A stretch of DNA of 64,000 nucleotides from Mesodorylaimus sp. YZB2_4 (lineage: Eukaryota > Nematoda > Enoplea > Dorylaimida > Dorylaimidae). Below, one piece after another: positions 34,101 through 63,257 of the stretch (its first letter is position 1; each line of letters begins with the position of its first letter). Made by a program: the position numbers and the translations under genes. A model generated the notes under the pieces. That model saw only the letters and a list, made by a program, of their open reading frames with translations. It was not told the DNA's origin and made no database searches. Location of the stretch: assembly GCA_030248295.1 (NCBI GenBank), contig JASANH010000055.1:248001-312000 (forward strand). The letters are read 5' to 3'.

Positions 34101-37100
34101 GTTTTGTTATTCAGAAGGCAATATCAGCCTCTTGAATAACAAAAACCTTTGACTATTCACCTGGAGCCTGAATATTGGCTCCAGATGAATAGTCAAAGGT
34201 AACCGCCAGCAGACACAATCAGCTGGAATTCCCCAAATAAATGCCAGATAACTTACTTCCGCTCCAAACGTAAAACCCATGACTGCGATTAACATGCAGA
34301 AAAAGAATTCCAGTTTTCGGAATCCGAATTTATCCAAGAATAAGAAGCTCAATGTGTCCACAACAGTGATCAGGACACCGGCCCAGAGTGGGATGCTGAA
34401 AAGGGTTGCATATCACCACACTTGACCTGTGCTCTTGTGCTCTTCAGTACGAAAATGGGTCCAGCAGGGAGTGATGGAAGAGTGAGAGGCCGAGCCGGTG
34501 CGAACCATGCTTGTTTTGCATGTACGAGGGAGTTACGAAAATAACGCACTGGGATAGGGCCCATCAGCGATACTGATATTTCCTGATAAGGAGACTACAA
34601 GTACTTTTATGGCACGAAATTTTAAGACAATAATCTGACTCAAACTGTCAGCAGATCCGTGCCATCAGCGGAAGCTTGTTTCTCAATCATTGACGATTGC
34701 CACACCTCATGAAACCTATGCACTGAAAAATAGATGTGCAACATGCGCTATGACGAATATTGTTATGGCTTGTGCTCAGTGTTGTGCCAATGGGAAACTT
34801 GTTTTCAGGAGCACCCTTACTGGAGAAGATGGACCCCACAGCACAGTGGAGAAATGTATACCGCTATGTTTTCGAATTCATCAAGAGGGGAAATGAGACT
34901 GTTGCCAGCAGAAAATGTATCATAGCGAAAAGAAATTTTTTAAAATTTGTCAGCTTGTCAACAGTTTTTGCTTTTAGTCGGCCAGTAGTCAAAGCTCTGT
35001 GTACATATGATCTACGTGTGGGAGGACCAGCCTTATACCAGAGTACTCGACATCCTGCACTCACAGACACGAGTGCCTGACCGACCTGCACTGAATGACG
35101 TAAATTTGTGGACCTTGAATAACATGCAAAGAGTTATCTCCAATTCAACCTATTCTCTAAAAGCACCTGAGTGCGATTAAAAATCTGCGTCATCACAGAC
35201 CTTATTCAAACAAAGTACATCCTTTGCAGCAATAAAAAATTGATGCTTGCAGATAATGTTATCTGGTTCTGTTTCGGGAAGCTATCTAATGTCTGGAGAA
35301 GTTTCCTTTTCTGGGTCATTTTGTGCGATGTTTCCCTTCCCCCCTCGAGTGCGAATAAGCGGTAAAGCATGAACCATGTGTCTACCTGTCATGGATCGCT
35401 GGGTCAGGGTCCTTTCTATGACGAGGAAAACGAAGAAACATGTTATGGGGCCCTATAATGTCGATCCGATAATTGCTCTCATGGAAACGAGGACCCAGCA
35501 TTGTCCCTTTATCCTTTCCAAACGAGCCTATATCTAGTTCTACCTTAGGTACATACTCGAATACGGGATGTAGGGAAGGTCAGGGAAGGGTACAGATGTT
35601 ACTCGCGCCCACCACCCAATAACTAAATGCGTCCTGCCGTATTATCGCCCCCTGAGTCTAAGCGATCGACACCATTTTTGACGAATTCGAGGGGGGGGGA
35701 GCTTAAGAACTTTGCATGAAACTCAGAGTTAGCAGCCTCACGATCACATTGTTTGCAGTCGAAGTCATACAATACAATACAATACAATGACCCCCGTAAG
35801 ACTAGTGAAACATTAACTGGACTGGTGATGTGCCACTTAAACCTATCTCGAGCGCGTGTTGCATAGGCACATACTCGAGTATGGGATGCAGGAAAGGCCA
35901 GGAAGGAAGATATTCAAAGGGGACAGGGCAGAGAAGTGTCCAGGTAGGTTTCATTGGTTTTTGACTACCTACTTCATTTTGACTGAATGACTTTCATCTG
36001 GACAGCGTAAGCTCCAACGCATAACCTATTGCTGGTCAACCCCTTCTGGGATTGCCCGACAGGTGTCGGGTGCCTGGACTCACAACAGGAGGCGGTGAAT
36101 GCGGGTTTCAGCAGAGTGCTTGCATGGTCAGGAACAGACCAGGTGGTTTGATGTTTCAGCCATCTTTCCATCTGCGGAAATGTCTCATACTTGGAATTTT
36201 CTGGACTGTGGTCTCATTTCTCCAGACCCCTAAGTGGGTATTAATAATACTGTTTTGTCAATCAAGAAAACGACTTACATTCCGCTGGATAATAGAGTGA
36301 ATGCGATGGCAGTCCCGATCACTTCCTGCATATCTGCCCCAATAATGGCAACTTCGATCATGATCCAAAGAATGATCCTTGGTGCCTTCGCATAGTACAC
36401 ATGGGCCACTTCCGCCATGTGCATCCCGGATACAACTCCCAGACGAGCCGATAAACGTTGCAGCAGAAGACCAAGAATATGTGCCAGAAGGAGGACCCAT
36501 AGAAGCTGGAAGAGAATGCTATGAAGACGAGGCCACGGCAGCACCCAGGTAGAGACTTACACTGAACCCAGCCAGAGCACCAGAGCTCAAATCGGACTCG
36601 ATGTTGCCCGGGTCCAAATACGCAATACTCATCAAAAAACCAGGTCCCAAAAAGGCCAGCAGATAGCGGAAGCTGAATCGAGTCTGAAAAATGGGGGCTT
36701 TTGCCTATTTGGAGGGATGGCGGGCCTTGAATGGTCGATTAGAGAATCGTAGTTGGTGTGGGTGTCTGAGGCATTCATTGCTTGCGCATATGGTCAGAGA
36801 TATGTATGACTGTTAAGCCGCTCGAACCAGTCCTCGTACATATCGATATGGGAAAACGAGTCGGCTCGGCCTTTCTTCCTGGTCATGGGGCAGGGCTGGT
36901 CTCGCTCTGGTCCTGACCAGGGATAAAGACAAGTAGCTCATGCATCATGCGCACGCTAAATGTTTCGCGCTAACGGAGTACATTGAGGCACCTACTCCAC
37001 TGCTCATATATGGAAGATGGTCCACGGGGAACGGTAAGGACATACCAAGTGTTCTGCACTGTAGACCGTTCCAGAACGGCAGGGAATAGCCTGCACGTCT

Positions 37101-37610
37101 TGAAGGCGCCTTCAAGGAGCTCTACCCGTTTTTTGTGGTAGATCTTTGAAAGCAATGTGTTTCTGCCCTCTTGGAACGACTACAGTACATCGAGAGCCCA
37201 GCTCAGACCAGCTGGGATCTGAGTATGGCAATTAAATGCACAATGTCCCCCTTGGCCAAATGCTAGTTGTCCTCCTGCCTCTGATAAGACACCAATCCCA
37301 ATTGATTTCAGGGAGATGGGTTCACTAGGGCAGCTTTGACAGGCGGTTTCCAGGCGACATGATTCTTATGCCCCAGCATTCCAGCGGTATGTGATGCAGA
37401 CAGTGTTTACACCCAGACAGTTCAGGAAGCTGCGTGGTCATGAGATCACAATGACAGAATACAGTACTTTAGATCAACCCGGTTCGACTCTAGTCAGCTT
37501 ACCCCTTCTTTCATGTCAGGCATTTCGACCGCTTTTTCATTCATTTCATCCACAGCCGTCACCACCATTCTTTCTCTCTTCGTACCACCGTTGCCCACAT
37601 CTTTGTCCAT
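31134..37610 (-). CDS. SLC11A: Nramp/SLC11 divalent metal-proton symporter
   Basis: Moves Fe2+/Mn2+ with protons across plasma, endosomal or lysosomal membranes. Exons are 37610-37503, 36683-36561, 36505-36279, 34395-34257, 34076-33921, 33844-33686, 33514-33341, 31848-31625, 31569-31410 and 31346-31134. Phases agree throughout, giving about 560 residues, close to human DMT1 (561). The metal site is intact: DPGN in TM1 (residues 60-63) and MPH in TM6 (239-241). The family signature [20 protein letters not shown] is complete. The first exon encodes a charged cytosolic tail starting MDKDVGNGG. The last exon finishes TM12 ([11 protein letters not shown]) and adds a tail of about 55 residues unlike other Nramps, so the end is the least certain part. 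A 2.5-kb intron (33340-31849) is crowded with foldback repeats. Confidence 0.94.
32073..32243 (+). repeat. Folded short element, family D, copy 2
   Basis: CCTGGTAGGCGTAGG ... CCATGGCCTACCAG, with the internal foldbacks CAACCCgaGGGGTTG and GAGAGTAtcgatTACTCTC. It sits in a Nramp intron, next to other hairpins. Confidence 0.8.
32472..32616 (+). repeat. Folded short element, family D, copy 3
   Basis: Same ends and internal stems as the copy 230 bases to the left, but with a shorter variable arm. The bases TAACCAAT before it match TAACCGAG before the copy at 54029, so the true element may start a few bases earlier. Confidence 0.8.
34099..34200 (-). repeat. Two overlapping foldback hairpins in a Nramp intron
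   Basis: Arms 34099-34118 and 34127-34147 pair with small bulges. Arms 34145-34168 and 34177-34200 pair over 24 bases with one mismatch (ACCTTTGACTATTCACCTGG and its complement). They overlap by about three bases and lie about 110 bases from exon 34257-34076 borders, inside the intron between exons 4 and 5 of Nramp. Confidence 0.85.
35547..35915 (+). repeat. Direct repeat of about 46 bp plus (CAATA)n
   Basis: ACATACTCGAATACGGGATGTAGGGAAGG (about 35551) recurs as ACATACTCGAGTATGGGATGCAGGAAAGG (about 35873). Between them, a CAATA pentamer is repeated four times at about 35768-35787. All lie in the Nramp intron between exons 3 and 4. Confidence 0.6.
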
Positions 37611-38674
37611 TTCGTCCCTCAATTCACTCAGTCAGTCCCAACAAGCCGCCACTCCAAACACCAGACCTGAAATACGAACCCGACAATATTGTCTGCACGG
37701 GCTTGTGACAAGTGAACACGAGCATGCCCCCAGCACCAGTTCATTGCGCCTAGGTTCACTTACAGATAAACCGTCTTATCACCTCCTTTCTCGACTACTA
37801 CGTGAAAAATCCACACTGTCTTCCGCAAGCCTAAAACAGACTTGACTTCCCTGACAGTGCTTATATGGAGCACGGAGTGCCTGGCATAACTGAGGCAATG
37901 ATACAATCTTGACAAGGGCAGGCTGTGAAAAACCATATGGACGGTTCTATGTTAACAAACTTAACTTCATTTGCGGACGTTCACAAAACCAAGTTCGAGC
38001 AAGGGTGGGAGGGGGAAGGTATGCTGCTCCATTGGTGAGAATGAGTGCCATTTATCAACAATAACGCCAAAACTCAGTGCAAATCTGTCTTAGCTATGCT
38101 TGATTCCCTACAGTGTGAGAAGGAATGACATCCGCAGGAAGTCACATGACAGACGACGGCTGGGTAATCTCCGTTGCAAACTGGCAATGCAAAAAAAAGA
38201 GTAGGCGCACTGCGATGTAAAGATACGCCCACAAAATGTGAGCCTTAAGCAGGAATCGAACCCGTACCTGAGGCGTTGCAGTGTGTGGTTAGTACCCGAT
38301 GATATCAGAGGCGTGGGTTCGATTCCCGCTCGAGGATCATATTTTTGCGAGTATCTTCATCTATATTACTGAAAGATGTAAAAGTTTTAAAAAGATTTAG
38401 TACTCGGCCTACATATACTGTATGTTTCACGATCAGCGCTACTGCACCAGACATTGCCGTGGAAATGACGGAAAATACGTTGAGTAGACCGCCTATTGAT
38501 ATAAGCAGCCATCTATCCTAAGCATTTGTCTGCTGTACGCGGCAAAATAATATTCCATTACTGGCGCGCTTGTTTTGTTTTTTTTTGTTCGGCAAACGTT
38601 TTTTAAAATTTTGATATACTGCTGTGAATTTGTAATCTTGTAAACATTTCGGTGGTTTTTTCTCTTATTTGATA
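37611..38674. other. Intergenic, Nramp to p53 (divergent genes)
   Basis: The two genes run away from each other, so both promoters should lie here. A splice acceptor (ATTTCAG, about 37662) suggests that Nramp has an upstream non-coding exon. A SINE-like copy occupies 38234-38340. No TATA box near the p53 start is obvious. Confidence 0.45.
38234..38340 (+). repeat. tRNA-related SINE-like element
   Basis: GAGCCTTAAGCAGGAATCGAACCCG (inverted B box) is followed by an A-box-like TGTGGTTAGTACCCGATGA and the plus B box GTGGGTTCGATTCCCGCTCG. The two B-box motifs in opposite orientation match the copies near 10.3 kb. No acceptor stem pairs, so it is not a functional tRNA gene. It lies about 330 bases upstream of the p53 start codon. 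Confidence 0.5.
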
Positions 38675-41600
38675 ATGATTACGTCGCCGAAGAAAGAAGT
38701 AGAAGAAAGTCCGAGCAGAGCCGACGACGAAACTCGAGATAAAAGAGGCCACGACTCTGATAGTGCGTTTCTGTCGCAACCTCCGGTATTATTGGGCGGA
38801 GTAGGTTGTCCAGGAAATGGAAGCGGCAGCATTTCGTTATCGCAAATACATTTATCTCAAAATTCCGAAATTCGTAATTTATCTCAAGGTACATTCGAAA
38901 CCCTCGTGAGGACGTTGGCGGCCGAAAGCAATGACGGGTAAGGCTTTTGGTTGATTCCAGAAATGGGTTTTTAATAATGGCCAAAAACTGACATTTCGGA
39001 AAGAACTAGACGTCGATTTTTGATCAGATTGTAATCATCATCAGAGCAAAATGATTTTTATGATAAAGTTCGCCGAATGAGTTTTAACTGACATGATGAT
39101 TTTATTTGATGACTTTTGAGTTCAGTTTTGATTGTTCTTCTTTTTATTTTTACGGCTTTTTTCCCAGGTTCCCCTATTCTAGTCTCTTTCTTCCCCTCCT
39201 TTCTTCCCGTCCTAAGCATGTATATGAATCGCAATCCCTTCCGCTCTTATCTATAGTTTCAGATTTTCCTCGTGTTTTACCATTTTTTCCTTCTTTTTCC
39301 ATTCGTGACTCAACAACGAAATCACAAAACGAAAAATGCGCAAATTCAAATCAACCACAGATCGTTTTCGTTATTTCATCACGGAGACAAAAATACAAAA
39401 TCGACAAGATAAAACAAAGAAAAACTAGTTCGATTCATCAATGTGATCACAGAGCGGGTTCTAAAACATACATTTTCATCTCTTAGTCTCGAGTGAACAT
39501 TTTTTAATATTAAAAACACTCACCTTTGTCTTGCAATATTCCAATCGCAAGCTTACTTAGCCTAATTCCGCCTTTTCGTTATTCGTCTATTGAACACGAT
39601 CTATAAAAGACATAACGATAACAACCGAAAAGTTAGCACTTATCAATAAAATTGAAACTACAAATACATCATTGTTTTCCCCAGAGCAAGAAAGTGTCGT
39701 GTCCTCGAATTTTACATAACGGAGTTAATCTTCACTGATTCTCACTTCCTTCCTACATTATTTTCTTTTCTTCGATAGCCTCTGAAAAATTCCCCTAAAT
39801 CCTTAAAGATGCAAACACTTCTCAGAATGACGAAAAAACCTTGCTTTTGTAAATTCATAAACTATCTCACCTGTCTTTCTTCGCTTCGAGAATAAAAAAT
39901 GTTCCGAAGTTTAATGCGATTACATACAGGCGAAATTTTTCATGATTTGTTCCCCCCCAAACGGAACCTTTCCCTAAAAATAAAAACCAAAAATGAAGTA
40001 AAATTCGAATTTATTATAGCAATAATTCATTTCAGGTACTTCTAGCTACATTTCACGCAAAAAATTCCAATGAAACAAAGGTTCTCGTCAAGGTTCGCTC
40101 CAGGGTCTGCTCTTTCCATGCAGAGCATGACCCTCGCCAGGGTCTGCTCCGCCGTGGAGAGCATAACCCTCGGGAGAGCACCCTGGAGCACACCCTCGGC
40201 CTATCCTACAGCACACAGGACAGGATCCTGTCCAACGAGGGTGGCGAAAGTAACAAGATCCTACGCACATCAGCCCCACTAAGCTTTTTGTGCACCATGC
40301 GGTGGGAGTGCGCAAATGTCGTTCGGTATTGGTAAAGACAACATAATAGATTGGATGAGGCACTGAGACAGCTGAGGGTGCTGCATTTGGAGCTCCAGGA
40401 TGGACTGGAACCAAGGATGACAGTGATCCGTTAGAATGTTCCTTGGCATTTCATGAAAGAAGGCGGCTCAGGGCGCCAAACGATGCAGCAAAAACGAAAA
40501 TTATTTCATGTTCCGTTCACGAAACTAGGATTTCGAGATTTTTGAAAAGCTTTTTAATCCAACAAATAAATCTACAGTGCTTCATCCAGCGATCGATTCT
40601 CTGCGCAGAGATTGCAGCTAAGAAAATCACCCGTCGTGGTGATGTTCCTCGGCATACCCAAATACCATGTGTGGGCATTGTGGGCAGGGGCTACTCCCAT
40701 CCAAGGCTTGGTCGGCAAAAATTGTCGAAGGCGACCCGATCCCGCAAGGTCTCGCGCGAAAACATGCGTACCCCTACCCCTGCTATACAGTGATAGATTC
40801 AGGATTCAGAAAAACGAATATTATCTCTAATAGGTGTAATCATTTTTAGCGTCCATTCCTTCAATGGAGTCGGAGCAGAACAAGAACTTCGCACTACGCC
40901 ATCCATTTGTTCAGACTTGCTCCCTTTGAACATCTGCTCGCCTTCGGGGATTATCAGCGGAAACGGAATTCAGGTACGTCTTTTCTGCGATTCCGAAGGA
41001 CTCCGAGCTGTCCGAACGAATTACTAGGGGACATAAGGTACTCAAAAAAATCCTTCCCGGTGGCGAGTTAACCCTCGCCACTGACTGCGCACTCATTATC
41101 AGAGTGGCAGGCGCCTAACCGGCTAGATTTTGGCTGAAAGAAAATTGAATTTACTGCAGCATCAGTCCGGTGCAAAAACTTTGCGAGATCCCGAAAAAAA
41201 TTGTCCAGCCCTTGTGTTGTGTGTGATGCAACTTGTACTTTTTGGGATTAGCACGGCTGGATAAATTAGCTGTTTAGTTGATCCGTGTTTGGCTACAAAT
41301 ATGGATACATAATTAGCATTTAGTGTAACAGTTTTCTTTTTCTTTAGGCGGCCATGGTTTATGGAAGTTTATCGGTGGATACTGCTGCCATTCAATGTCC
41401 TGCAGGTTATTACGGGCCCAGTATCGTGAGTACGGTGCGTATTCATTGACACATTGAGAAGGGGCCAGCTAGCCGTGGGACTTCTGGGGTGCAGTAAGTG
41501 GACGATGCTCTTTGAGATTGGTGGTTTGGGAGAGAAGCATTCACCTGAATTTTCAACTAGTATCTTTTTATGGCTCTGTGGTTGGTACGACGTATTGGCA

Positions 41601-44600
41601 AGGTCTGGATGCTGAACGGGTGATTTGCGTGTGTGATTTTTAACTTGACTTGATGTTTTGGGGAGGAAAATTTGTCTCGCTACTTTTCACAATAGAGTTT
41701 TTTAGGAAGCTTTTGTGTGCTGAGCTCGTGCCGCCTCATAATTAGTTTCCCCAGGGACTTTCCATCCCTTTTGTCTATAGCCTGCCAGCGGTCTCGATAA
41801 GGAGCCGTAAAGCGACAAAATGTCGCGGAAGGTACCCTCAGACGACCAGTTTCCTCTCTGAGAACGGGCTTGCTAAACTGCTGTTCCAGCCGAGATAGAA
41901 CTGCGGCCTCCTGGTCAGGGTTGCTGGCCCAAGCCATGCAGAACCAGCGCCCTTAACTAAGTGAGTCATCGCGCCTCACTCATTTTCCAATGAACTGATC
42001 GTGAGATAACGGCAGCTTCTTGAGATAATTTTCTTCTGAACTCGCCCTCTTAGGGGCAGGAGTAACGCATACACGCAACCTTAGGCGGAGTTGCTGCGTT
42101 CATCCCCTTCCTATGTCAATTCAGTGAGAATCATATTGTCAGCGGAACAGTGCCGCATTAGGAGAAAGGCAGGTTTGTGTGCAGCGGGGCTCTTTTTAGC
42201 GACGCCGTTTGAGCTGTCTAGTTGTTTGTTTAGGCTGGCGGGGGGGGGGGGGGGACGTGTTCAGACTTGTCACAGGCCCGACTTGTTCGACTACGATTGT
42301 TCGTAGCGCGTATATGCTGACTGATTCAGTCTTGCTGTCTCGAGTTGCTTTGTTTCATGGGAAGATCTTTTTTCTTTCTGACGTGAAAAATTGTTTATTT
42401 TGTGAGTTTCAAGTGAGCGCAGTTTAGATAGTTCTATGTTGCAACGTCCATGCTGTTTTTGGATTTTCCACCAAATCTTGAATTTCGCGCAAATTTTTTA
42501 AAAGTTGTTTTCTAAAATATTTCCTTATTTGCCTTTTCTCAACCCGTTATAAAAAGAATAGGAGGGAGGGTCTGAGGACGTGTTTATGCTTATACGCTAA
42601 AAGTAATCCGGTCATACATGCCGACACCCTATAATAGCCTATAATCATCATAGGCTGACCTTCAAAATTTTCGAAAATTTTGAAAAAAGGCGGGGGATTG
42701 CGCAGTCGCGGCCGAGAAAATTTTTTAAAAAAATTCACCTTTATTCTGCGCGCATAAGCAAATTTTGCGCAGTCTATTCCAGCTTTTGCCTGCTCTGGTG
42801 CGTATCATTCGTTGAAGGTGTTTTCGCCTCCACTGCGCAATTGGTACTGTGTACTGGTAACGCGTGGTAATCACGTGCTTCCGTAATGACTGTAGTAAAA
42901 ATGAACCGCACAGGTTCACCAAGAAATTACGAACTTAGGTGTCTGCGCATCGAAGACAGCGAAATTTTGTGATTATGAGCCAAAAATGTCAAAATTCAGT
43001 GATTGCGCATCAAAAACAGCGAAATTTAGTCATTTTGAGCCAAAAATGGCAAAGTTCAGAGATTGGGAGCCATCCATAAAGGACGTCTACCCTGGGGGGA
43101 GGGTGGGGGTGAGCGGAAAGTTGACGGAAGTGGATGGAGGAGAGGGGAGGCTGCCGCCAAGTGGACGTCCACTTCACAAAATCGGCGGGTTATCTCGGAA
43201 AATTATCGCAATTATGATAGTATTAACGCTAGAGATACGAGTCAAATTACTAATATTTAAATCATTAAATGAAACGACTATCCGAGGACTCAGGTCGATT
43301 ATATTCCAGTTTTCCCAAACATTTTTCATCCCTTTTGGCTTCTCTTTTTCTGAGGCGGATAAAACGATTTTGGTGGTGCTGCCAGTGGCTTTGTCGCTCA
43401 ATCTGGTGTCTTGGTAACCAAGACCTGCAGGGGTGGGAGAGGGGGTTTGCTGGGCAAGTACTCTGAATGTGAGAGAGAGCGACTACATCTGTGGCTGAAA
43501 CATCAACCACGGGCCGACCTCCCCATCCAAGGCGATGGATTGCAGGCGCTAGGGGGCCATCGGGATGTCAGGGATGTTGCCCAATTATAGCACTGACTGA
43601 TCCGACCCTCGACGTGAGTCCCGATCTCGACCTGGGTGATCCGTTCAAGAAATGAGATATTTTTATGGATAAGGTTCCCAGCAGCCTGCCCTATAGTTCC
43701 TTTCCTCACTGTCCATCAAACCACTCCAAAAACTCAGGAGCACTACCTTGCACCTACATAAAGCGGGATTCAATTCTGCTTTTGGAGGAAAATTGGAGAA
43801 GTTTTAAATTGGATGAGGCATGACACATTTTCAGAGAGAGAGCGTAAAATTTTAGTTCCCAATTTGGCTGATGCAGCAGTCGAATCAAACCGGAGACTGA
43901 ATGACCCATCATTTCGGCGGATCAGTCGATGGTGGGAGCAATGCTGTTTCGAAGAGAATATTTTCCTATGTGGGGGGGGGGGGGTCTGCTCAAGTAGTCG
44001 TCCATTTTTAGGGGGGTCCAGGCGAAACGGATGAAAGGTGGATAGGGGGAGGGGAGTCGAAAAATCGCATTTTTTGGTGGACGTCCTTTATGGATGGCCC
44101 CTTGAGCATCTAAAACAGCGAAATTTAGTGATTTTGAGCCGAAAATCGAAAAATTCAGTGATAGCGCATCAAAAACAGCGAAATTTAGGGATCGCGTATT
44201 GAAGACAGCGAAATTTAGTGATTTCGAGCCGAAAGTAACAAAATTCAATGATTGCGCATCGAAAACAGCAAAATTTAGGGATTGCGCACCAAAACAGCAA
44301 AATTTAGGGATTGCGCACCAATTTTGTCAGGGGGATTGCGCAATTATAGGCTAAAGTTCAGACCGTCGGCATGTATGATCCGGATAGTGGCTGCTCTTTG
44401 AAGCCCCCCCCCCCCCCCAGCATCGACCGATCTGAATCTCAGCCTGGTAGCGTTCGTTCGGGATCCCGATAAAAAATGGTCGGGATTGAATGTTGTGGAG
44501 ATGTGAAGAAGGGGAAGGGGAGAGGAAGGGATCGGGAAGGGAGTGTTCCAGAAGGGTAAGCTGGGAAAACTTTGGTGGATGATTGAACTGGAAAGGAGGA

Positions 44601-47600
44601 AGTGAGGGATTTGTTTGCTAGTTGGTGACTAATTCTAGATGATTTTGAATGCCATGATGAATACTGCGCATAAAAATTTTAAGTTCTATATTTGCTGGCC
44701 ACTTAAGGCGGTTTGTAGGTTACCTACATCGAATTAAAAGTGAAAAAATAACACTCTAAAAATCCCGAGGTCGGCCGGGATTGAGCGAATCCCGATCCCG
44801 AAAAAAGTGATCCCGAACGAGCGCTACAGCCTGGATCCCGATCCCGTTCCAATCCATACTCTGGATCGGCCCGATCCGGCTGATCCGATCCGATCTCAAA
44901 CCAAAAACTGCACAGAATCCGGCACAATCGTTGTTTTTCATTCCAAGTATGGGCAAGGAAGGTAAGGGGGTAAACCCTCCCCCTCCCCCTGTTGGGCCGG
45001 CCAGGACATTGAACCCTTCCTCTCAAACCCCCCCCCCCCCCCATTGAATCATTGATTATCATTGAATTCAGAATCAGGCAAGCAAAAACAGCGGAGAATC
45101 CATTACAAATTAGCAATCAAATCCCTCTTCCTTTCTCTCTATCGATTCAATCACCCGCCACAGTCCCAATATTTCTCCCTTTGAAAAATTCTAATCGCCA
45201 TGACCATGTGAGTCAGTGCCGATCAGAATGTTGTCAGCTTACGCAGCAGCTGATGATGGCCCACCATCGTGACTGAACAGGAAATGGAAAATGCTGGCTG
45301 ATACCATATCCAACTGCGCGCAGATTGTATTTCGAAAAAGCAGGACTTGTGCATTTTCTGAGAGTAGTTCTATTCGATCCTGACATTCTCGCTCATACAC
45401 CAATCCCGTTCCCTGTTCCAATAAAAGCATTTTATCTCCACAACATTCTCCCGAATCCCGACCGGGATCGGGATCCCGAACGAACGCGAAGGCCAGGATC
45501 TAAACAGTGTGTTTGTATTTAGGTTCACGGATACTCGCTCTATCAACCAGTGATTGGCACGACATTTGTGAACGCTAATGCCATGGCAGCCGCTGTGCAC
45601 CACACCGATGCTGTGCCGACTGCGATTCAGCAAGTGCATAGTCCATTATCCATGGCCCGCGCTGTGGTGGCTCCAAGGGCCATAGAAAGTGCCAGTCCCG
45701 AAGTAGGTTGCATTGTAACTGTACGCACACTACTCGTGACTACAGTGTGACGCTTTTCTGCTCTAGCTATTCGCTGCCTTGCCAGTGATCTCGCCTATGC
45801 TGCCTTCGAAAATGAGTAACATTCCAATCACGTAAGTGTTTTATGGAGGCTAGGGTTACTAGGAGGTGTGTGGAGTCTCCCCGTAAAATGGTCCTGCTGC
45901 GCCTACTCTACCCCTGATCGTTAATGTCATTGAAAGGGCATATGCCACCTATACCACCTAGGATGATGGGTGCAGAGGCGGGGGAAATGTGGCTAGCAGG
46001 CCATGTTCTACCTATGTTGATTCCGATTGGGGAACCGATTTTTCATGTTACGAGAAAAATAATTTTAAAGCAGGTTCAAGTTTTTAAAAATGGCGGGAAA
46101 TTTATCACCTCTTGGCTCCTAGACCTCGCCGATACATGGTGTGCGTGGGGCTCACTTCTGTTTGAGCTCACCGATTGGGTTAGTGCTAGAAGACGGACTA
46201 CTCACTGTCAGGTTCCCAAAAAGAAAAATTTCATTTTTTATAGTAAAGAAGGCCCTTTTTTTTCCTGGAAGGCCCAAACTGATTTTAAATTTTCGCGGGA
46301 AAAATTCAATTTTTACGAGCCACCAATGACGCCGCCATGTCGCCGACCCCCGCTCCCCGGAAAGAAGATCAGACCCCCCTCCTCGCGAGCGATGTTGGAG
46401 TAGATGTACCGTATTGTGTCTTATATATACATGCAGTAGTACAGTTTAAATGCAAAGTTAGAGGTTTAAAGTGATAATCAAGACAAAAAAGCAGATATCA
46501 AAAACTTTTACTCTGAGCGGGATTTGAACCCCGTGTAATTCGCAGCTTCATTGTAGCACTGCATACGATGGATTATTCGGGTTCGCAGTATCATTCCAAG
46601 CTCCAAAAGAGAACGTTTCGAAGAAATCTGTTCCTTTTGTGGTAAGTTGTGTTTTACCACGTCGCTAAATGTGGATATGGGCATTTAAAGAAATAAAATA
46701 ACGATTTTTAATATGCCTATGCCATTTTAGTATTCGGATGTCAGAAAGAAATTGTACGTCGACATGAAAACGCCGTGTCCAGTTAACTTCAAGTGCACTG
46801 GTGGTATGCCACCGCCGGACAGTAGCATCCGATCACTGTTGATCTATTCGAAAGCTCAGGATATTGGAGATGTGGTTCGGCGGTGCAGTAATCATGCGGC
46901 ACAGGACAGTAAGTCGGGTCAGGTGCTGGATGGATGGGTGGTGATGGAGAAAGGGATGGGAGGCTAAAAGTGCGAAAAGGAGGACGATCTGGGCGCTGTG
47001 TGTGGACGCGCCGCAGTCACAAGCAGTTTTGATTTCCAGAATTTAGTGTAAAGCAAGTAGGGGCAAGGTTCAGATGCTAAGGGAGTAGGACTATGCCATC
47101 TTAGGGGTAAATATGCTTTTCCGTCAGACTCCAAGTGCGACCCAGGGAGATGGGCGGATACAAAATGGATGTACAAGCGGACTCTTGGCAGTTTTTCGTC
47201 CGGCCAAGCCTAGGGGTTACGCCCCCCCACCGCATTCCAAAGTAATGGTGTATGGATGAGTTTCGTGTTGGGACAGTGTTACGGGGCATGTAGTGTCTAC
47301 CTATACTAGGACATACTGTAACTCTTTAGATTCATATCTCGCTCTGTTATTTTGGCGACGCCCCAAGGATTTATGTATGTGCAACGTAAAGTGGCAGTTC
47401 CTAAAAAGTTGATGGGGCATCTCAAGGGAGCAGTGTAAAGCAGAAAAGTTAAACTGCAGTTTGTGGAGATTCTCTTTCTTCACAACTTATATTCGCCGTT
47501 TGCGCTGATGCTGTGTTTCATGTGCATTTGTGAATCAGCTCTTCGTAGTTCACATCACAATGCATCTACGCACAAAAGAAACTTATTTTTAGCACATCCT

Positions 47601-48573
47601 GAGAATCATCACGTTTTGCGTGTGGTGCACCAGCCATGCCAGTATGTCGATGATGCCGCGACTGGTCGTTATTCGGTTGTCGTTCCGTGGAATAATCCGT
47701 CTGTTGGAACAGATTACGTGACAGTGTTTTATCAATTCATGTGCTATAGTTCGTGCATTGGTGGCATCAATCGTCGACCTCTGCAAATCGTATTCACTTT
47801 GGAGAATAAGTAAGTCTACTGGAAGTCTTATGTGTAGGAGGGTGCTGTAATGACACAGGGGTCACGAGACGACTATTGTGACCAGAAATATGCCTTGGGT
47901 GGGCGGTGGGAGGTCGAGTGAGGGCAGCTCGTTGTTGACTAGTCGTCGGAGAAAGCTGGTCTAGTCGTGAGTGTTTTGCAGTGCGTGTGAACTCCTGGTG
48001 CCCTCCCGAGTCAAGAAGCGAGTTGCTTCTTGACTCGGGAGGCACCAGGAGCACGTGGAGGTAATGGGCTAGCGTGTTGTAGTACTGCCAAAAAATCAGC
48101 AAACATGTACGAGTATTGTGTTTACTCATTTCAGTGGAACGGTCCTGGGCCGTCAAACAGTCGATTTACGTATTTGCGCCTGTCCTGGTCGTGATTGGAA
48201 AAATGATGAGGGTCAGGATGTGGAACCGAGTGCGAAGAAGCGTCGTCTTCACAATACGCGGGTAAATTTGGGGGAATCATCGCACAAAAGGCATTGCCTG
48301 GGGCTGCCTCGTTTGGCGCCTAGACCCGAAGACGCGAACAATTGCTCGAGTCGACTGACGTTGGGCAGTGGAGATAAGAATCGATCACCAGTCGTCGACG
48401 AGGATCAGTATGAAAAGGACGATGACATGGTTTATAATCTGCCGATTCGGGGACGACGAATGTTCAAGTTAATGGCCTCGATGTACAGGCAGATTCGCAG
48501 AGAAGTTGCATATCAACGCGATGATGCTGCCAATGAAGCGAAATTTAGCATGGATAAAGAAAAAGAAGGGTGA
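38675..48573 (+). CDS. TP53-like: p53/p63/p73-family transcription factor
   Basis: Nuclear stress-response transcription factor. Exons are 38675-38937, 40850-40973, 41348-41425 (or to 41434), 45523-45702, 45767-45831, 46557-46641, 46731-46908, 47539-47809 and 48135-48573. Phases agree, giving about 560 residues. An MDM2-box-like LSQGTFETLVRTL lies near residue 74. The DNA-binding domain starts at about 240 (DGLFGFAVSF). Zn ligands are present in RRCSNH and FMCYSSC. DNA-contact arginines are in GGINRRP (R248) and RICACPGRD (R273, R280). K120 aligns with KKSVPF. A basic NLS-like KKRRL is followed by the tetramerisation strand-helix VYNLPIRGRRMFKLMASMYRQ. No SAM domain follows; the stop comes about 25 residues later. 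Position R282 is W, Y220 is W and R337 is M. Intron 1 carries a transposon copy. Confidence 0.95.
39216..40276 (+). mobile_element. Second copy of the hAT-like element, in p53 intron 1
   Basis: It aligns along its length with 25270-26220 and then with 28314-28410, skipping the nested Harbinger element. It lacks the outer part of both TIRs (the right side stops after TCCTACGCACATCAGCCC). Relative to the other copy it shows dozens of one- to three-base losses. Confidence 0.85.
42930..44335. repeat. Tandem array split by an inverted-repeat insertion, p53 intron 3
   Basis: Units of roughly 50 bases (GATTGCGCATCAAAAACAGC + GAAATTTAGTGATTTTGAGCC) repeat at 42930-43075 and again at 44103-44335. Between the halves, GCCATCCATAAAGGACGTC (43069) and its inverse GACGTCCTTTATGGATGGC (44081) face each other, marking an inserted element or pair of elements of about 1 kb. 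The insert also holds a probable family A copy at 43590-43936. Confidence 0.75.
43590..43936 (+). repeat. Probable family A element (divergent)
   Basis: It has ends GCACTGACTGATCCGACC and GCGGATCAGTCGATGGTGG, which resemble the CCAGCATCGACTGA ends of family A in inverted form. The interior is too diverged to align by eye. Confidence 0.35.
44448..44826 (-). repeat. MITE-like element, family B, short copy with both ends
   Basis: Ends TAGCGTTCGTTCGGGATC and (inverted) TAGCGCTCGTTCGGGATC bound 379 bases. The interior matches the 13-kb copy in the same orientation. It lies in p53 intron 3. Confidence 0.75.
45050..45487 (+). repeat. MITE-like element, family B
   Basis: It matches the 21.6-kb copy from the AATCAGGCAAGC block to the terminal GGGATCCCGAACGAACGC, 35 bases before p53 exon 4. 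The left terminus is missing, replaced by C-rich sequence ending in a run of 15 C. Confidence 0.7.
46505..46550 (-). repeat. SINE fragment abutting a p53 splice acceptor
   Basis: CTGAGCGGGATTTGAACCCCG is the inverted B-box half of the tRNA-like family. It ends about 30 bases before the p53 exon that starts at 46557, so part of the acceptor's upstream region is repeat-derived. Confidence 0.45.
47992..48051 (+). repeat. 27-bp foldback hairpin in the last p53 intron
   Basis: CTCCTGGTGCCCTCCCGAGT.. is followed after a 5-base loop (GAGTT) by its complement. The arms are 28 and 27 bases, with one unpaired C and no mismatch. It lies 84 bases upstream of the final exon, which carries R273/R280 and the tetramerisation domain. 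Confidence 0.92.
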
Positions 48574-48750
48574 AAAGTGACCTCGTGTGAAACTGCGTTT
48601 AGACACCTCTGTGTCACTCAAGGTAATTTGAATTTTCGTTGATTGGTTCAGGATGGGTATTACAGTGTAAGATTTTTTAGTTAGTTACAGCTATAATATA
48701 TCGCACAGCGATTATCTTAAAATAAGTACAGTATTAAAATTTTTCGTTAT

Positions 48751-48756
48751 AATAAA
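48751..48756 (+). terminator. Candidate poly(A) signal for p53
   Basis: AATAAA lies 178 bases after the p53 stop codon, in the 357-base gap before the convergent transporter gene. The hexamer is the sole evidence. Confidence 0.5.
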
Positions 48757-48930: not shown

Positions 48931-51900
48931 TTAGTTACTGTCAATTTTGATGAGAATGGATGGCAGTTTTTTGGGATAGACTAAAATGAAGTAGACGATG
49001 AGGCCGCTGAATGCCACGCCGAAACCGACTGCACTGACCAGTGGGGCTTGGTATGTGGCGACCCCGACGACGAAGGCGTTCATAAGGAGGAAGAAGAAGT
49101 GGAGAGGAAGGGGAACCTGAAAGAGGGGAGGCACACTCGATAAACTGTACACCTCTGTATCCTCTGGTGGATCCGTCTTCGTTATGCGCTCAGGAGAACG
49201 TACCGTGGTGCACACGTGATTGGGCAAGCCCACCTATCCCACTGACTGTCCATACGTCGACATACGAGTATACTGTAGCCTAGCCAGACGGCTGACAGCC
49301 AGGGCTGCCAAGGTGGGTAGGCAGGACAGGACTTTCAGTCTCGTTTGGGACTGGCAGCAATTGGTGCGTACATCGACCCATCCCAGTTGCCCTGTCTAGG
49401 ACCTCGAGGTACACAGTCTGATTCCGACTCTATTGGTTGGTTGATAACGCTTTTTATCCGCAGCTGCTCCCTCTCACCTTGACTGCGTTATCGTGCACTT
49501 GTATTCGCTTCAGCCTTATCCAGATCAGAGCACTGATAACGAAAAATCGTTGCAGCCACAGCACGAAGACCACGTAATTGATTAACTGGTCCACACCAGC
49601 AACGTTGGCCATAATGATAGCCATGATAGCCTGCAAGACACTCAGGGTCAAGCAACGCACTGCATGTGTGAGCAATGCTGTCCAGCAGTGTTTGCTGTTG
49701 ATATGCGAAGGTGACAGTGGAGGAAAGTGTCGGACAAATGACTGCTCAGGAAAGGAAAGGAAATGAGCGCAGTAGAGGAAAGTGACCGCTCCAATGAAAC
49801 CCTTGGGAAACTATTTCAAACGGGTCCGATGCGGGAAAATAAAACAGCAGCCCAAAGTGGCATCGAAGTCCACCACAATGGCTGATAATTTTATTCTCAA
49901 AAGAGCCTCGCACCCTCGCAGCATACCTATGAATTCGCTAAATTACTTTAGTTTCCTCGCTCACTCTTCTCTTCTCTATCGTGACCGTCATGGAAGGGTG
50001 CATCCCCACAGTCCCAAGAAAAATATTTGAGGGGCTGTGAATTATAACTAAATGGGTCCTAGGAGGGAACGTGAGTGAGTAGTTACACTAGGTACACACC
50101 GCCATTGTTATACCATGCACAAAAAACACAGACTTACATAAACGCATAAAGCAGGTTGAGGGGTCTCGTGTTTTACACTCAGCAGTTTCATGAAGCTGGG
50201 GAGGTGGCCTTGACGAGCGGCAGCATAGAAGTATCTGAAATAGGAATTGTCGCGTTGTGCACGGCATGAATGAAGACTGCGGGATGGCACCTGCTGGAAG
50301 TGAACAATGAGGAATTGAGGGTGCCCATGATGACCACACCAACTATCGCGGGTATCGCGTACGAAAAGCCGCCGAGCATGACTTGGCTGAATGTCTGAAA
50401 TGCCAAGGTATAGTAGAGTGTGGATCGGTTCTGATTGCAAGGACATGCCCAGAGTTCCTCAGGGATATTATCCTGGACTGAATGCCTACTGCATACCCAT
50501 TCTCTGCTTACCTGTGCAACAGCCTCCGATTGCAAAACACCATCTTTGCCCAGGACTGCAAAATAGGCAACGTTCGCCATCAGATATATGATCATGACGA
50601 TACTGGTGCCACCAAAAATCGATAAAACTAGTGTTCTGCATGCAAATGTCACCTGGGAACTATCTGATGACAAAACTTAACATAACATACCTTTTAGGGT
50701 TGTGTAGTTCCTCCACACCAAAGTTTAGAGTATCCCAGCCGTCGTATGCCCAGAGACCACCATAGAAAGCGATCACAATATTTGTGCCCCATTCAGAACC
50801 TTGCATCGAATTGCTCAAATTTGATGCGCCATCTGCGAAAACAAATAATCAGGTCCAGCCATCGGCAAACCACACATCATGTGCTGTATAGGCCAGCAAA
50901 AACACACTGCGCACAAACTGACATTGTGAGAATCTTAATTTCTTGAATTTAACAAAAATCGAGGTCACTAAATTTGAGTGCAGTTTCAGTCGAACAATGG
51001 TCCAACGGTTTGTGACACCTGTAGAAACGACTTACTAGCAATCAGAGCGTAAATTCCAGTGGCAATAATCAACACCAATGAGCCGACTTTGCATGCTGTG
51101 ACCACAATTTGGATCTTCGCAGCGTACTTGGTCAAGTGATAAAAATTGATCCAAGTCAGGAGTACTGGAAATGACACCAACATGCACTATGACCTAGCAT
51201 GGTAAAGCCAAGGTGAGGGGGTGCTCGAAGCGGGGGCTTTACCATGTCGCGATACAGCATCATGTATTTTTTTCCATTTGTAATCACACACTACTGTGCC
51301 AATAAACTTTATATGACGATGCGTCTTGGGTTTTTCATACAGCTGCTACAGTACATCCCTGTAGCAAGAAAAAGTATTTTTAAATGTTTTCTCACGATCA
51401 GACGGTCAGACAGTCAGAGAATAGGAAAAAGTTCAACATGCGTCAGTGTGACTTACCGCGTCTACCAACCGCCCTAATTTCCTGATAAGACCGTGTTTAT
51501 CAGTAGCGATTAAGTGTTTCTTGATCATGTCACTGGTGTTTGATATTGCATCAGCTTGGGCAAAGATAGATTTTTGAGACGTTCACTAGACGCACATACG
51601 AAGTGCCCCTCTCGATCGCTTGTAGGAATGACTTTATGAAAAACGAGATCAGTGCACAGGCGTTCTGTGTTCTGGCCAAAGGAGACATCTGAGGAATGAT
51701 CCAATGTCACGTAATCGTTGAATGAATTTTGACACACTAGCCAATCATTTCAGGCAAACTGGTCGTGAGATAGGTGTCATCAAGTCGAGGAAAAATGAGC
51801 ACTACTAACTTACTGCATTTGACTAGGATAAACTGTATTCGTTCTTACGCGGTGGGATGGCCATAAAATTTTTGAATGATTTCGCATCTGTAAGCTATCA

Positions 51901-52456
51901 TATTGGCCTCACACGTTTCTGCCAGTGGTCAGTCGGCGAAGCTCCCCAACTTAATTTGACCCAAGGGCAGTGGAGTGGGTGCAAGATCCCCAACCAAGTG
52001 AGTTCAAGCGGACTTACACAATAATAGGAATCCAATTAATTTTCCCGCCACATCAGCAATATAAGGTGTGAAGCAGTAGAGAGGGGACAAGGCTTGTAAA
52101 ACGTACGAGCCGAAAGTTTTTACCAAAATAGCAATACTACAAGGTTTATAAATAACGAATGTTGTCCAGAGAAAAGCAAATGCCAGAGGGTACCATTTGA
52201 CGAAACACAAATAAGCAAAATCACCACCAGAGACTGGTATGCTAGTGCCCAGTTCCACGTAACACAGGGCGCCCACTAAACTCAAAAGTCCGCAGGTTGC
52301 CCACACGAGTAAGGACAGGCCGATAGAGCCTGTATTTTGCAGTATTCCTTGGGGTGTGATGAATATACCAGATCCAATAATATCGCCAACCAAGTAGGCT
52401 GTGGATGCAGTCACTCCCAGACGACGTGGTTCGGTCAGTGGGGCAGATGCAGCCAT
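48931..52456 (-). CDS. SLC7A: SLC7 light chain of a heteromeric amino-acid transporter (LAT/y+LAT type)
   Basis: A 12-TM exchanger that pairs with a SLC3 heavy chain at the plasma membrane. Exons are 52456-52018, 51164-51036, 50832-50691, 50635-50512, 50394-50291, 50234-50138, 49630-49478 and 49116-48931, all in phase, giving 457 residues. Matches to the family: GDIIGSGIFITPQGIL (TM1 substrate motif), GALCYVELGTSIPVSGGDFAYL, WDTLNFGVEELHNP, FTSSRYFYAAARQGHLPSFM, and DQLINYVVF. C128 (SPLYCFTP) sits where the light chain makes its disulphide to the heavy chain, so pairing is likely conserved. The donor of exon 5 (GTGCCA) is weak. The start ATG is the first in the frame; both termini are short. 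It converges on p53, with 357 bases between stop codons. Confidence 0.94.
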
Positions 52457-54028
52457 TCGTCCAATGAGTGAGCACAGCTGTTAGCCTTGTTAAGTCTACG
52501 AGCTCTCTTAAGCAGTCTCACATCGGGCGCAAAGAGTTTATGGACGATATATTTGGTGAAGCTAAGAGCACGGCCACAATGTACTTGGCAGCTTTTGTCG
52601 CCTTTGAAGAGGCGAATGGTTGTTCTGCAAGTGGGCGATAGGTGGGCAAACATTGCGTCAGGGCCAGAAGTTTGGCCTTGATGATAACAACAAGACTGTG
52701 CAGGTCACATGTTGACGCAAGCGAGACAAGAACAAAAACTTTTGTTTTTGAAGGCGATTACTCGCAGAGTTTATGAAAATGGTGTCATGTGGCAGAAAAT
52801 AAGACACATTGGCGTGTTCGCAGGATATAATGAGGCATAAGATGCAGTAGAAATATTTGCACCATTTTTCTTTGTTTCAGTTGCAAATATGATCAATTAA
52901 GAGCATGCACGAAAAGAAAACAAATGAGATCAGGGATTGACTTGTTTGTGGGGAACGCTCAAGTGGGTGCTGAGGGTGCTGGAAAAACTCTAGTACACTG
53001 AAGCCAGTACAAAATTTTCCGCCACTTGAAATATCGCTCTGAGGTTTGAAGCGATATACTTTTGTTACAGTAGGATTCACGGTAATCCAATCTGATGGTG
53101 AGTCTTGCGTTTCCAAATCCTCCCTAAGCGTATGGCATTTCCAGAAACAGCTCTGGCTCTGCCTGGCTTCCAGAAACTGATGGCTTTTCTATTGTGCTTT
53201 CTCTGCCATTCTCTGAACTCCTACGACTGAGAAGCTGTGCAATACGCGGCTCCTGCTGGGGGGGGGGGGGGCTCGAGGGAGGTGCACGCCCCATTGGATC
53301 AGATGTATCTGATCAAGATTTTAACCCCAACGACCCGCTATTACGAGCCAAAGGTCGCTCCCTCACACCACCCCGCTGCGAGCAGTTGGATAATAATATC
53401 CTCTCACTAGCACCAACTTTCAGATCTACCACCGATTTGACCTGGGAGGCGACACCAGCGGGAAATCCAAAGAGTCGCCATCAGACTTTACTAGTGCAAG
53501 ACCAGATATTTCAGGTTCGCTGGAGGCATCGAGGAAGGAAACATGAATTTTTGATTTTCTCATAGACTTGTCACGCAACACGGTCAGTTCCAAATTACCA
53601 AAGCTTAGGATCGTCAGATGTACTGTATTCCCTAGATGGACAGGGCGGTTCCCTAGTCCTATGACGTGCCCTAATTAAAAAGGTGCCCTTGGCTTACTGT
53701 AGGGTTGTGAGGCTCCCTAACTGAGGAAGTCAGTTCCGAATACTTGTCCTTTTTTTCTACCAACTTTGGAGCCTGCTGATTTTCAAGATCGCACTTTTGC
53801 TCTTCGCATTCTCAAGAGAGTTTTGGCTACACCAACACATTCCCATCGTAGACACTTCAGACAAAATTATGTTGGCAGTGATTTTGAAATTAAACAGACA
53901 GTTAGCTTCCAACACGGCTGCTGCTTTGATTGTTTTATATCAATTTGCTATTGTTACCTGTACCCCTCCTTTTAGGTTCCTTCAGGTAGAGATCTTTTGT
54001 CTTTTTATGCGAGACAGCTATAACCGAG
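52457..54028. other. Upstream of SLC7; no gene seen
   Basis: Presumably it holds the SLC7 promoter. A run of 14 G lies at 53258-53271. An open plus-strand frame at 53194-53565 spans that homopolymer and has no family resemblance. Confidence 0.45.
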
Positions 54029-60800: not shown

Positions 60801-63257
60801 AACAGAATTGGCATTTTTTCACTTTAGTCCACGATCATTCTTCTTATTCCTTTTACCACCGTAAGCATCATGCCACAGAAAAAATTTGGATCCTCGCATG
60901 ACAATTTCGATGTGTTAATTTTCAGAATCATACTAGAAGCGGCTTATTCATTGAAAGATCGAGCCTTCGCCGAAAATTTGGGCACAATCGTTTTGTACGC
61001 AGTTGTGGTACACTTTAGGACACTTTGCCATGAAGAAAGGAAAGCAAGAAATTTGTTTCAGGGAACTATTCTAAATGTGTTCATCGTCGGCCCAACCTTA
61101 TTCGGGTTTTATCTGGCTGGTTTCATGGGAGACTCGATGACACTCAATTTCCTCGAATGCCTTATTTTTAGTGCTATAATCGCTGCTGTTGATCCAGTTG
61201 CAGTGAGTCAAATATAATTTTAGGAGGTTTTTCTCATAAAATTGGAAATTTTTAAGGTGCTTGCTATTTTCGAGGAAATTGGTGTCAACAAAATGTTATA
61301 TTTTATGGTTTTCGGAGAGAGTTTGTTCAATGGTGAGAAAATTTCAGTGGCTACTCGTACTGATGCTGTATGTGAATCTGGAATACAAAAATGTCTGTTC
61401 AAGTTCAGGGTGTCAGCTGCATCTTCGACGAGTTCTTACAAAGTTTCAGGCTCCCCAGCCAGTTTTAAATTTTTGCGGGAATTCAAATCAGTGTGAATTT
61501 TAATGCTTGATGCTTTACTTGGTACATTAGTCGAGCTGGATACTTCTTACAATTTCAGATGCTGTGACTGTGGTTCTCTACAATATGGTCCTATCATTTA
61601 TGCAAATTGACCAATTGGGTGTTCGCGAATTCGGTCTTGGTTTCGCTGCCTTTTTATGCGTCAGCCTTGGCGGAATGGCAATCGGAACGTTTTATGGTTT
61701 TATGACAGCCCTGGCCACAAAATACTCAACTAAATTGAGAGGTAAAGTTTATAAAAGGTGATAAAATATTTTTTTAATTGATCATAACTTTAGTTCTGGA
61801 ACCCGCTATCATTTATGGGGTGGCGTATTTGTCATATATTTCGGCTGAACTATTCCATTTTTCTGGAATAATAAGGTGCAAAGTTTTACAAACTCACTCG
61901 TGCAAAATGCAACATAACTTGATTTTAGCATCATTTGTTGTGGCCTTATTCAATCATATTATGCGGCTGAGAATATATCCTCAAAGTCGTTTATCACCGT
62001 ATTTCATTTTAGCAAAGTGATGAGGTGAGATAAATTTAATCATATTTTTTTACGTTAGAGATGAAAAATGTGTAGACCAGTGGAGTATCAGGCATCACAT
62101 GTACAAGAAATGACAAAGAACATGCAGTGTGGTTAGTTTTTCTATTCCTGCGCGCATCACAGCCAATTCAGCAGTTACTTGAGTAGTAACTATGTGTAGC
62201 CTTACGCACTAGTAATATGCATCGTTTAGTATGTTTACCTCTAACTGTGGCGTGCTGAAAATGACGTGAGCATACGAGTACATGTGCATGTATATGGTAT
62301 TATATGTATTATACATATATCACAATATATGTATAATATATAGTATATTCTACATATATTTAAATATACATTATTATATGTGCATATAATACTTATTATA
62401 AATATATAAACATATATATGTATATATATATACATACACACACGGAATCAAGATCTTTGTATGAAGAGACGCTGTACATTGCACAAAACTTGACCTTTGA
62501 GCGGGAATCGAATGCTCACCTGATATTCACCTTGAGGCTAAGGCAGGTTTTGTGTGCATATGCATATCTACTACCAGTTATGAGTCTCTTTCCAACGACA
62601 GCTGACACGCCCGCATTGGATATGTGCGTGACATATAAAGTGGATGTCAACGCGTACACATAGAATTAGGGATAATTTGTATATCTTAGAGTTATATCAT
62701 GTGCCTGGTATATCTTCTTGTCGTCACGTTCTTACAATACATATTTGTCTATTTTGCAAAGCATAACAAATTTATGCCATTCTAGCAGCATAGCGGAATC
62801 GCTTATTTTCATCATCCTTGGTGTTATGCTTGTCAACGAATATAAATCCTGGGCAAACTTCAACGTCGGATTCTCTTTAATTGCCGTCTTCTTGTGTATT
62901 CTTTCGCGGTTTGCCGGTAAGTACAGTGTAGCAGTAGGACAGTGAGCTATATTGTGGGTAAGACTTGGACGGCTTGGGATGATTTTAAAATTTCCATCCA
63001 TTTTAAACTCGTATTTTCGACAAAAATAGTTTTTCCCCTGATCTGCTCCCTGCTGGCAATAATTCACAAGCTTATCGTGAATCCATCCTCTTAGAGCAGG
63101 GGTGGAGCAGGAAAATTCCCCTTCCTCCCATGCCCATTCGCGATAACCAACAAAGAATGGTTTCCGACAATTTCTAGTGGTGTTCTTTCTGGCGTACATT
63201 GTGAACAGCGTGGTCGTCAGCGTGAGAAAAATCCGACGCCAAGAACAGTTTATTATG
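57811..63257 (+). CDS. SLC9A: SLC9 Na+/H+ exchanger, 3' part outside window
   Basis: Plasma-membrane-type Na+/H+ antiporter of the CPA1 family. Exons are 57811-58063, 59290-59335, 60744-60860, 60926-61007, 61062-61202, 61257-61332, 61559-61741, 61794-61875, 61929-62024, 62786-62916 and 63178-63257, in phase. A hydrophobic leader (MNSYRIISLISIFLSL) is followed by a loop with NST, NMS and NYS glycosylation sites. Family marks are IPESCLLI, the amiloride-region FFLFLLPPIIL, NLGTIVLYAVVGT, AAVDPVAVLAIFEE and FGESLFNDAVTVVLY (catalytic Asp pair retained), and AELFHFSG. The last exon ends RRQEQFIM just before the expected YGGLRG block, so at least TM10 onward and the regulatory tail are missing. 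Similarity is closest to the NHE1-3/5 group. Confidence 0.94.
62259..62445. repeat. AT-rich TATA/TACA microsatellite in an exchanger intron
   Basis: Alternating TATATG, TATTATA and TACACACACAC sequence, about 180 bases, likely slippage-prone and cruciform-forming. No function is inferred. Confidence 0.8.
62497..62545 (-). repeat. tRNA-related SINE fragment
   Basis: TTTGAGCGGGAATCGAATGCTC carries the same inverted B-box half as the copies at 16064, 38238 and 46508. It directly follows the AT-rich tract in the same intron. Confidence 0.4.

What the first reader, a model, noticed from the sequence alone, without database searches (positions are those of the whole stretch)
48135..48230. p53 with tryptophan at the R282 position
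The conserved H2 segment reads CACPGRDWKND. In human p53 it is CACPGRDRRT, and p63/p73 have CACPGRDRK. Thus the residue at R282 is W, the same change as the human hotspot R282W. Y220 (human SVVVPY, here SVVVPW) and R337 (human RGRERF, here RGRRMF) also differ, both sites of known human mutations. A working protein would need compensating changes, making this a natural test of how the fold tolerates R282W.
Basis: partly seen in the sequence, partly recalled or inferred. Interest (0 to 1): 0.75.

Follow-up and report, generated by a model that had tools for sequence, protein, structure and literature searches.

The report
Invertebrate p53 with natural R282W residue
An intact-looking p53-family gene of an unidentified animal carries, as its own residue, the tryptophan that in human p53 is a well-known cancer mutation, together with a changed partner residue that may make it tolerable; this can be tested directly in the laboratory.

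Summary
A whole p53 DNA-binding domain lies on the + strand in five exons (45767-48573; Pfam P53 193.1 bits, cut-off 27). Codon TGG at 48196-48198 puts Trp at human position 282, gap-free in CACPGRDW. Zinc ligands are kept at 4 of 4 and DNA contacts at 7 of 8 positions checked (the eighth is Lys as in p73); of seven hotspot positions checked, 220 and 282 differ. Best PDB match: the Alvinella (annelid) p53 domain, which has R282. The telling neighbour is T125, the published hydrogen-bond partner of R282: Thr in 3 of 3 comparison proteins, Val here, beside a loop L1 three residues longer. Stabilising residues (Y239, L133, F236/I253, F255/V270) are present but are wider traits. Best reading: a working p53 in which a polar link became a hydrophobic contact. 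Against: the domain is fast-evolving (20 of 79 otherwise invariant columns changed), so T125V may be coincidence, and changes do not cluster significantly near L1. Species, reads, expression, relatives and structure remain open.

The parts
41348..41425 (+). tentative upstream coding exon; exon end and reading frame uncertain
   Evidence: ttctttag acceptor; ATC|gtgagt donor with a frame that fits the next exon; another frame of the same stretch reads FMEVYRWILLPFNVLQ; no homology support
45523..45702 (+). exon of the N-terminal region (60 codons)
   Evidence: tttag acceptor, GAA|gtaggt donor, open frame in phase; no homology support
45767..45831 (+). exon leading into the DNA-binding domain (...SNIPIT)
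   Evidence: gtaagt donor, phase 2 joins exon 46557
46557..46641 (+). DBD exon: N-terminus and loop L1, three residues longer than human; ends at codon 125
46639..46641 (+). codon GTG, Val at human T125, the hydrogen-bond partner of R282
   Evidence: partner role from PMC3855832, passages
46731..46908 (+). DBD exon: S2-S2' to helix H1, zinc ligands C176 (46884) and H179 (46893)
47593..47809 (+). DBD exon: W220 (47688), F236, C238, Y239 (47745), C242, R248, R249, I253, F255
48135..48573 (+). last exon: end of DBD with helix H2, linker with KKRRL (48235-48249), tetramerisation-like motif, stop
48196..48198 (+). codon TGG, Trp at human R282
48430..48534 (+). tetramerisation-like motif VYNLPIRGRRMF..., Met at human R337
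   Evidence: (PF07710 11.5 bits, below its cut-off of 20.7)
48751..48756 (+). AATAAA, candidate poly(A) signal 178 bases after the stop
   Evidence: an ATTAAA also lies at 48733

Best explanation
This is a working p53-family transcription factor of an invertebrate, apparently without a SAM domain, in which the normally conserved R282 has become W. In human p53, R282 ties helix H2 to loop L1 and strand S2 partly through the T125 side chain; R282W breaks this and costs about 3 kcal/mol, while the mutant still binds DNA. Here T125 is Val and L1 is rebuilt, so the polar link is probably replaced by a hydrophobic contact of W282 with V125/F124. The cost is carried by a p63-like, stabilised domain (Y239, L133, F236/I253, F255/V270) and probably by a body temperature below 37 C. 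Shown: the residues, the open spliced frame (a model, without transcripts) and the conservation pattern. Inferred: folding, the W282-V125 contact, DNA binding, body temperature, order of changes.
For: Open frame through the joined exons with only the terminal stop; 5 of 5 introns between 45703 and 48134 are GT-AG, 4 of 5 with GTAAGT. Zinc ligands 4 of 4 and DNA contacts 7 of 8 checked identical to human, the eighth (283) Lys as in p73. In 14 functional columns that I picked, 0 changed, against 20 of 79 invariant columns overall (hypergeometric 0.011). T125 is Thr in 3 of 3 comparison proteins and Val here; R282-T125 hydrogen bond, and poor density for residues 117-121 in 2J21 (PMC3855832, passages). 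R282W destabilises by about 3 kcal/mol (PMC13179279, passages) yet keeps significant DNA affinity (PMC8642532, passages), and the stabilised full-length R282W binds all five tested response elements. Y239 equals the suppressor N239Y, about 1.2 kcal/mol; F255/V270 is the invertebrate core (PMC8901663, section 8). Natural p53 domains of low melting point exist: C. teleta 39.1 C, trout 37.5 C (section 7).
Against: The window protein departs at 20 of 79 columns invariant in the other three (two of the 20 are gaps), against 14 of 73 for human p53, 7 of 66 for Alvinella and 3 of 62 for p73: it is fast-evolving, so T125V may be coincidence. Changes are not significantly concentrated around L1-S2-S2' (4 of 9 against 15 of 69, Fisher p 0.21). 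If 282 itself is counted as functional, the constraint test weakens to 1 of 15, p 0.057. In stable p63 the change of the same residue to Gly (R313G) abolished DNA binding although destabilisation was marked only '+' (PMC10113246, passages), so global stability alone need not rescue. Y239, L133 and F255/V270 are wider traits, not specific answers to W282. The tetramerisation motif is below Pfam's cut-off. Function, expression and structure untested.
Confidence: 0.6

Rival explanations
1. A duplicated or decaying p53 copy under relaxed selection: W282 is a loss-of-function change, tolerated because another copy does the work.
For: 20 of 79 otherwise invariant columns changed; tetramerisation motif below Pfam's cut-off (11.5 against 20.7 bits); for the leech Helobdella two p53 homologs are predicted, one with a changed DNA-contact residue and no intact tetramerisation domain (PMC8901663, section 5).
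Against: No stop or frameshift across the model and good splice sites; zinc ligands 4 of 4 and DNA contacts 7 of 8 kept. No second copy lies in the window: besides the gene's own exons tblastn gave one hit, E 7.0; the genome could not be searched.
Confidence: 0.2
2. The W codon is an assembly or sequencing error or a rare allele of a CGG or AGG arginine codon (one base away).
For: One substitution separates TGG from CGG or AGG; no reads are available.
Against: The partner residue 125, about 1.5 kb away in another exon, has changed as well, and the surrounding exon is open with no sign of disturbance.
Confidence: 0.07
3. W282 is adaptive: with the longer L1 (three added residues, N116, P123) it forms an altered DNA-reading module with changed target preference.
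For: L1 and H2 together serve major-groove binding, and R282 links them (PMC3855832, passages); L1 is three residues longer than human.
Against: K120, A276, C277 and R280 are kept; no binding data; L1 also differs in other invertebrates (one residue longer in Alvinella, shorter in fly and C. elegans; PMC8901663, section 5).
Confidence: 0.12

Closest known systems
Alvinella pompejana p53 homolog DBD (PDB 7pc6, PMC8901663)
   Same: Best PDB match by sequence (201.8 bits); 93 of 186 aligned residues identical; aromatic 239, Q268, F255/V270 core, R248/R273/R280
   Different: Has R282, T125, W124 and Q220; shorter L1
Human p53 R282W in the stabilised T-p53C background (PDB 2j21, 9suk) and R282W-DNA complexes (7b4e, 7b4f, 7b4g)
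   Same: W282; in 2j21 also L133 and Y239 as here
   Different: Engineered or tumour-derived; residue 125 was not printed and is taken to be Thr; residues 117-121 ill-defined in 2j21; I255/F270 core
Human p63/p73 DBD
   Same: L133, F236, I253 (p73 letters); human p63 domain is the most stable of those measured (Tm 60.4 C)
   Different: Arg at the 282 equivalent; p63 R313G is a disease mutation; p63/p73 have a SAM domain
Spalax p53 with Lys at 174 (a residue change seen in human tumours)
   Same: Natural species residue equal to a human tumour mutation (PMC3790848, passages)
   Different: Conservative Arg-Lys change at another site

Membership tests
p53 family (PF00870) | P53 DNA-binding domain above Pfam's cut-off | tested here: met
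   193.1 bits against 27, residues 4-189 of the 307-aa draft model
p53 family (PF00870) | Zinc ligands C176, H179, C238, C242 | tested here: met
   4 of 4
p53 family (PF00870) | DNA-contact residues 120, 241, 248, 273, 276, 277, 280, 283 (list partly recalled) | tested here: met
   7 of 8 identical to human; 283 is Lys as in p73
p53 family (PF00870) | Tetramerisation domain (PF07710) | tested here: inconclusive
   11.5 bits against a cut-off of 20.7, E 0.2, in the right place with LPIRGRRMF
p53 family (PF00870) | Transactivation domain | tested here: inconclusive
   A pattern scan of the + frames of 28000-45520 gave many chance-like matches; one stretch at 41343 is suggestive but its frame needs a poor splice donor
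p53 family (PF00870) | Arg at 282 (conserved, not defining) | tested here: not met
   Trp; Arg in 3 of 3 comparison proteins
p63/p73 type with C-terminal SAM domain | SAM domain after the tetramerisation domain | tested here: inconclusive
   None in the 307-aa model; stop at 48573 and AATAAA at 48751; an amino-acid permease gene on the other strand follows. No dedicated SAM scan was run and alternative exons are not excluded
Destabilised R282W-type mutant | Lowered melting temperature, disordered L1 | not testable with these tools
   Needs expressed protein or a solved structure

The most novel reading that the evidence does not exclude
W282 and V125, with the extended L1, are a co-evolved hydrophobic replacement of the R282-T125 polar lock: a natural, complete local rescue of a human cancer hotspot, which when transplanted (T125V plus L1) would restore human R282W.
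Probability: 0.25. Interest if true: 0.7.

Novelty: new variant of a known kind. Interest (0 to 1): 0.45.

Why it matters
R282 is among the seven most mutated p53 DBD hotspots (PMC3855832, passages), and R282W has not been a focus of drug discovery (PMC13179279, passages). A natural p53 that uses W282 with an otherwise intact DNA-binding surface would show which local changes let the fold bear it, as the F270V/I255F pair of invertebrate p53 did for another site (PMC8901663, section 8). It turns the question whether rescue needs local repacking or global stability into a small mutagenesis experiment. Species that carry a human disease residue as their normal residue are a known general class, so the kind of finding is not new; I saw no earlier report for this site in the searches listed under Tried and rejected.

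Tried and rejected
Relatives: the search for related loci with a 98-aa DBD segment gave 18 pattern matches in viral contigs and 79 in genome contigs, none confirmed as a relative by tblastn; those collections are viral and prokaryotic. The whole genome is not held. No tRNA (ARAGORN) and no Rfam match at gathering score. So species and copy number stay unknown.

Print: the motif CACPGRDW occurs in two papers of the held library, both on neoantigens in blood cancers by their titles (listing only). The other nine paper searches showed no report of a natural W282 in the listings or in the passages that I read. Many listed papers were not opened, among them both; subscription journals, figures and supplements were not seen, so alignments printed as figures could show one. 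PMC12068700, on p53 and lifespan across orders, gave no match for '282' at a word start; PMC11303390, on elephant p53, mentions R282 once, in a list of key residues. Two papers by Joerger and by Calhoun were not held.

Rejected: R337 and Y220 as signs of disease-like change. My recollection that p63 R304 is the counterpart of R282 was wrong: it is R313. Clustering of changes around L1 was tested and is not significant. A count of stops per exon ignored the reading phase and was not used. The first exon table had wrong ends for the tentative first exon and the last exon and was replaced.

Not run: structure prediction.

Full report
What is there. The window holds a p53-family gene on the + strand. 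A 307-aa draft model, whose exon junctions were not yet refined, matches Pfam P53 with 193.1 bits (cut-off 27) and, as best PDB chain, 7pc6 (E 1.6e-58), the Alvinella pompejana p53 domain of PMC8901663 (listing; aligned letters). The refined coding exons are 45523-45702, 45767-45831, 46557-46641, 46731-46908, 47593-47809 and 48135-48573, with a tentative exon 41348-41425 before them. All five introns between 45703 and 48134 are GT-AG, four with GTAAGT, and the joined frame is open to its stop. The junctions after codons 125, about 187 and about 261 lie where human TP53 has introns (recalled, not from a call). No start codon or transactivation domain was settled. The gene ends with a stop at 48573 and AATAAA at 48751. 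There are no transcripts, so all of this is a model.

The residue. TGG at 48196-48198 is Trp at human position 282, gap-free inside CACPGRDW. Among human p53 chains the best is 2j21 (155.5 bits), R282W in the stabilised background; 1uol, the same background with Arg, scores 149.2 and 1tsr 143.7. One search prints the letters that show the difference. Alvinella, p73 and p63 chains score higher than all of these.

What is conserved. Against human p53, human p73 and Alvinella, the window domain is identical at 74 of 187, 89 of 184 and 93 of 186 aligned positions. Zinc ligands are kept at 4 of 4; of eight DNA-contact positions checked, seven are identical to human and 283 is Lys as in p73; of seven hotspot positions checked, 175, 245, 248, 249 and 273 are kept, 220 and 282 differ. 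Of 79 columns invariant in the other three, the window departs at 20 (two of these are gaps), more than any of the others when each is left out in turn (human p53 14 of 73, p73 3 of 62, Alvinella 7 of 66). It is therefore a fast-evolving member, yet none of 14 functional columns changed (probability 0.011; with 282 counted in, 1 of 15, 0.057). I chose that list of sites myself, partly from recall, after seeing the alignment.

Why the substitution may be tolerable. In human p53, R282 hydrogen-bonds the T125 side chain; the R282W structure loses this bond, and density for residues 117-121 of L1 is inconclusive (PMC3855832, passages). R282W costs about 3 kcal/mol (PMC13179279, passages), but the mutant keeps significant DNA affinity (PMC8642532, passages). 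In the window, T125 is Val, C124 is Phe (Trp in p73 and Alvinella), T123 is Pro, and L1 is three residues longer than human, while E286 and D281 are kept. The loss of the arginine therefore coincides with loss of its partner. The domain also carries L133 and Y239, as in the engineered superstable human domain, F236/I253 as in p73, and the F255/V270 core of invertebrates. [quoted passage not shown] These are background, not specific answers to W282. Natural p53 domains can have low melting points (C. teleta 39.1 C, trout 37.5 C; section 7); that this animal is cold-blooded is an inference.

Evidence against. In thermostable p63 the corresponding R313, when changed to Gly, abolishes DNA binding with only '+' destabilisation (PMC10113246, passages), so stability alone need not suffice. 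The changed columns are not significantly concentrated near L1-S2-S2' (4 of 9 against 15 of 69, p 0.21). With so many changed columns, T125V could be a coincidence. One sequence from one assembly cannot exclude a rare allele or an error. The tetramerisation motif scores below Pfam's cut-off, which leaves room for a decaying copy.

R337 is Met here, but the R337-D352 salt bridge is absent from p63 and p73 (PMC4155161, passages). Position 220 is Trp here, Tyr in human p53 and p73, Gln in Alvinella; it is not a family-wide constraint.

Which animal. No genome is held. Y239 and the apparent lack of a SAM domain resemble what is reported for the leech Helobdella (PMC8901663, sections 5 and 8), but they also fit other lineages; this is a guess.

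Verdict. A real, probably functional p53 with a human hotspot residue as its own residue; the co-changed residue 125 gives a specific, testable mechanism.

Noticed in passing
41343-41402: One frame of the tentative first exon reads ...FRRPWFMEVYRWILLPFNVLQ (printed), which recalls the p53 transactivation/MDM2-binding box with its LLP...NVL stretch (human letters recalled). To be coding it would need the poor donor CAG|gttatt, which keeps phase 0 into 45523.
   Followed up: partly
47992-48051: Near-perfect hairpin (arms 28 and 27 bases, one bulged C, 5-base loop) in the p53 intron just before the W282 exon; RNA fold of 47975-48075 is -63 kcal/mol, z -8.1, 0 of 200 shuffles as good. The 12-mers tested from its arms occur nowhere else in the window.
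   Followed up: partly
42930-43116 and 44089-44305: Six partly overlapping copies of a repeat, four of them spaced 30 bases apart, in the long stretch before 45523.
   Followed up: no
44450-44470 and 45467-45487: Exact 21-base inverted repeat about 1 kb apart around GATCCCGA-rich, C-run-bearing DNA; looks like a mobile-element remnant.
   Followed up: no
26638-27030 (-): DDE transposase fragment (PF13359, E 3.3e-11; also Plant_tran, E 3.8e-8). The neighbouring ORF 27209-27673 gave no Pfam match.
   Followed up: partly
50191-52480 (-): Amino-acid permease gene, next after p53 on the opposite strand (AA_permease_2, E 6.3e-11 for the ORF 52007-52480; the ORF 50191-50676 matches below cut-off, 17.5 bits).
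   Followed up: partly
60828-61214 (+): Sodium/hydrogen exchanger exon (PF00999, E 1.8e-7).
   Followed up: no
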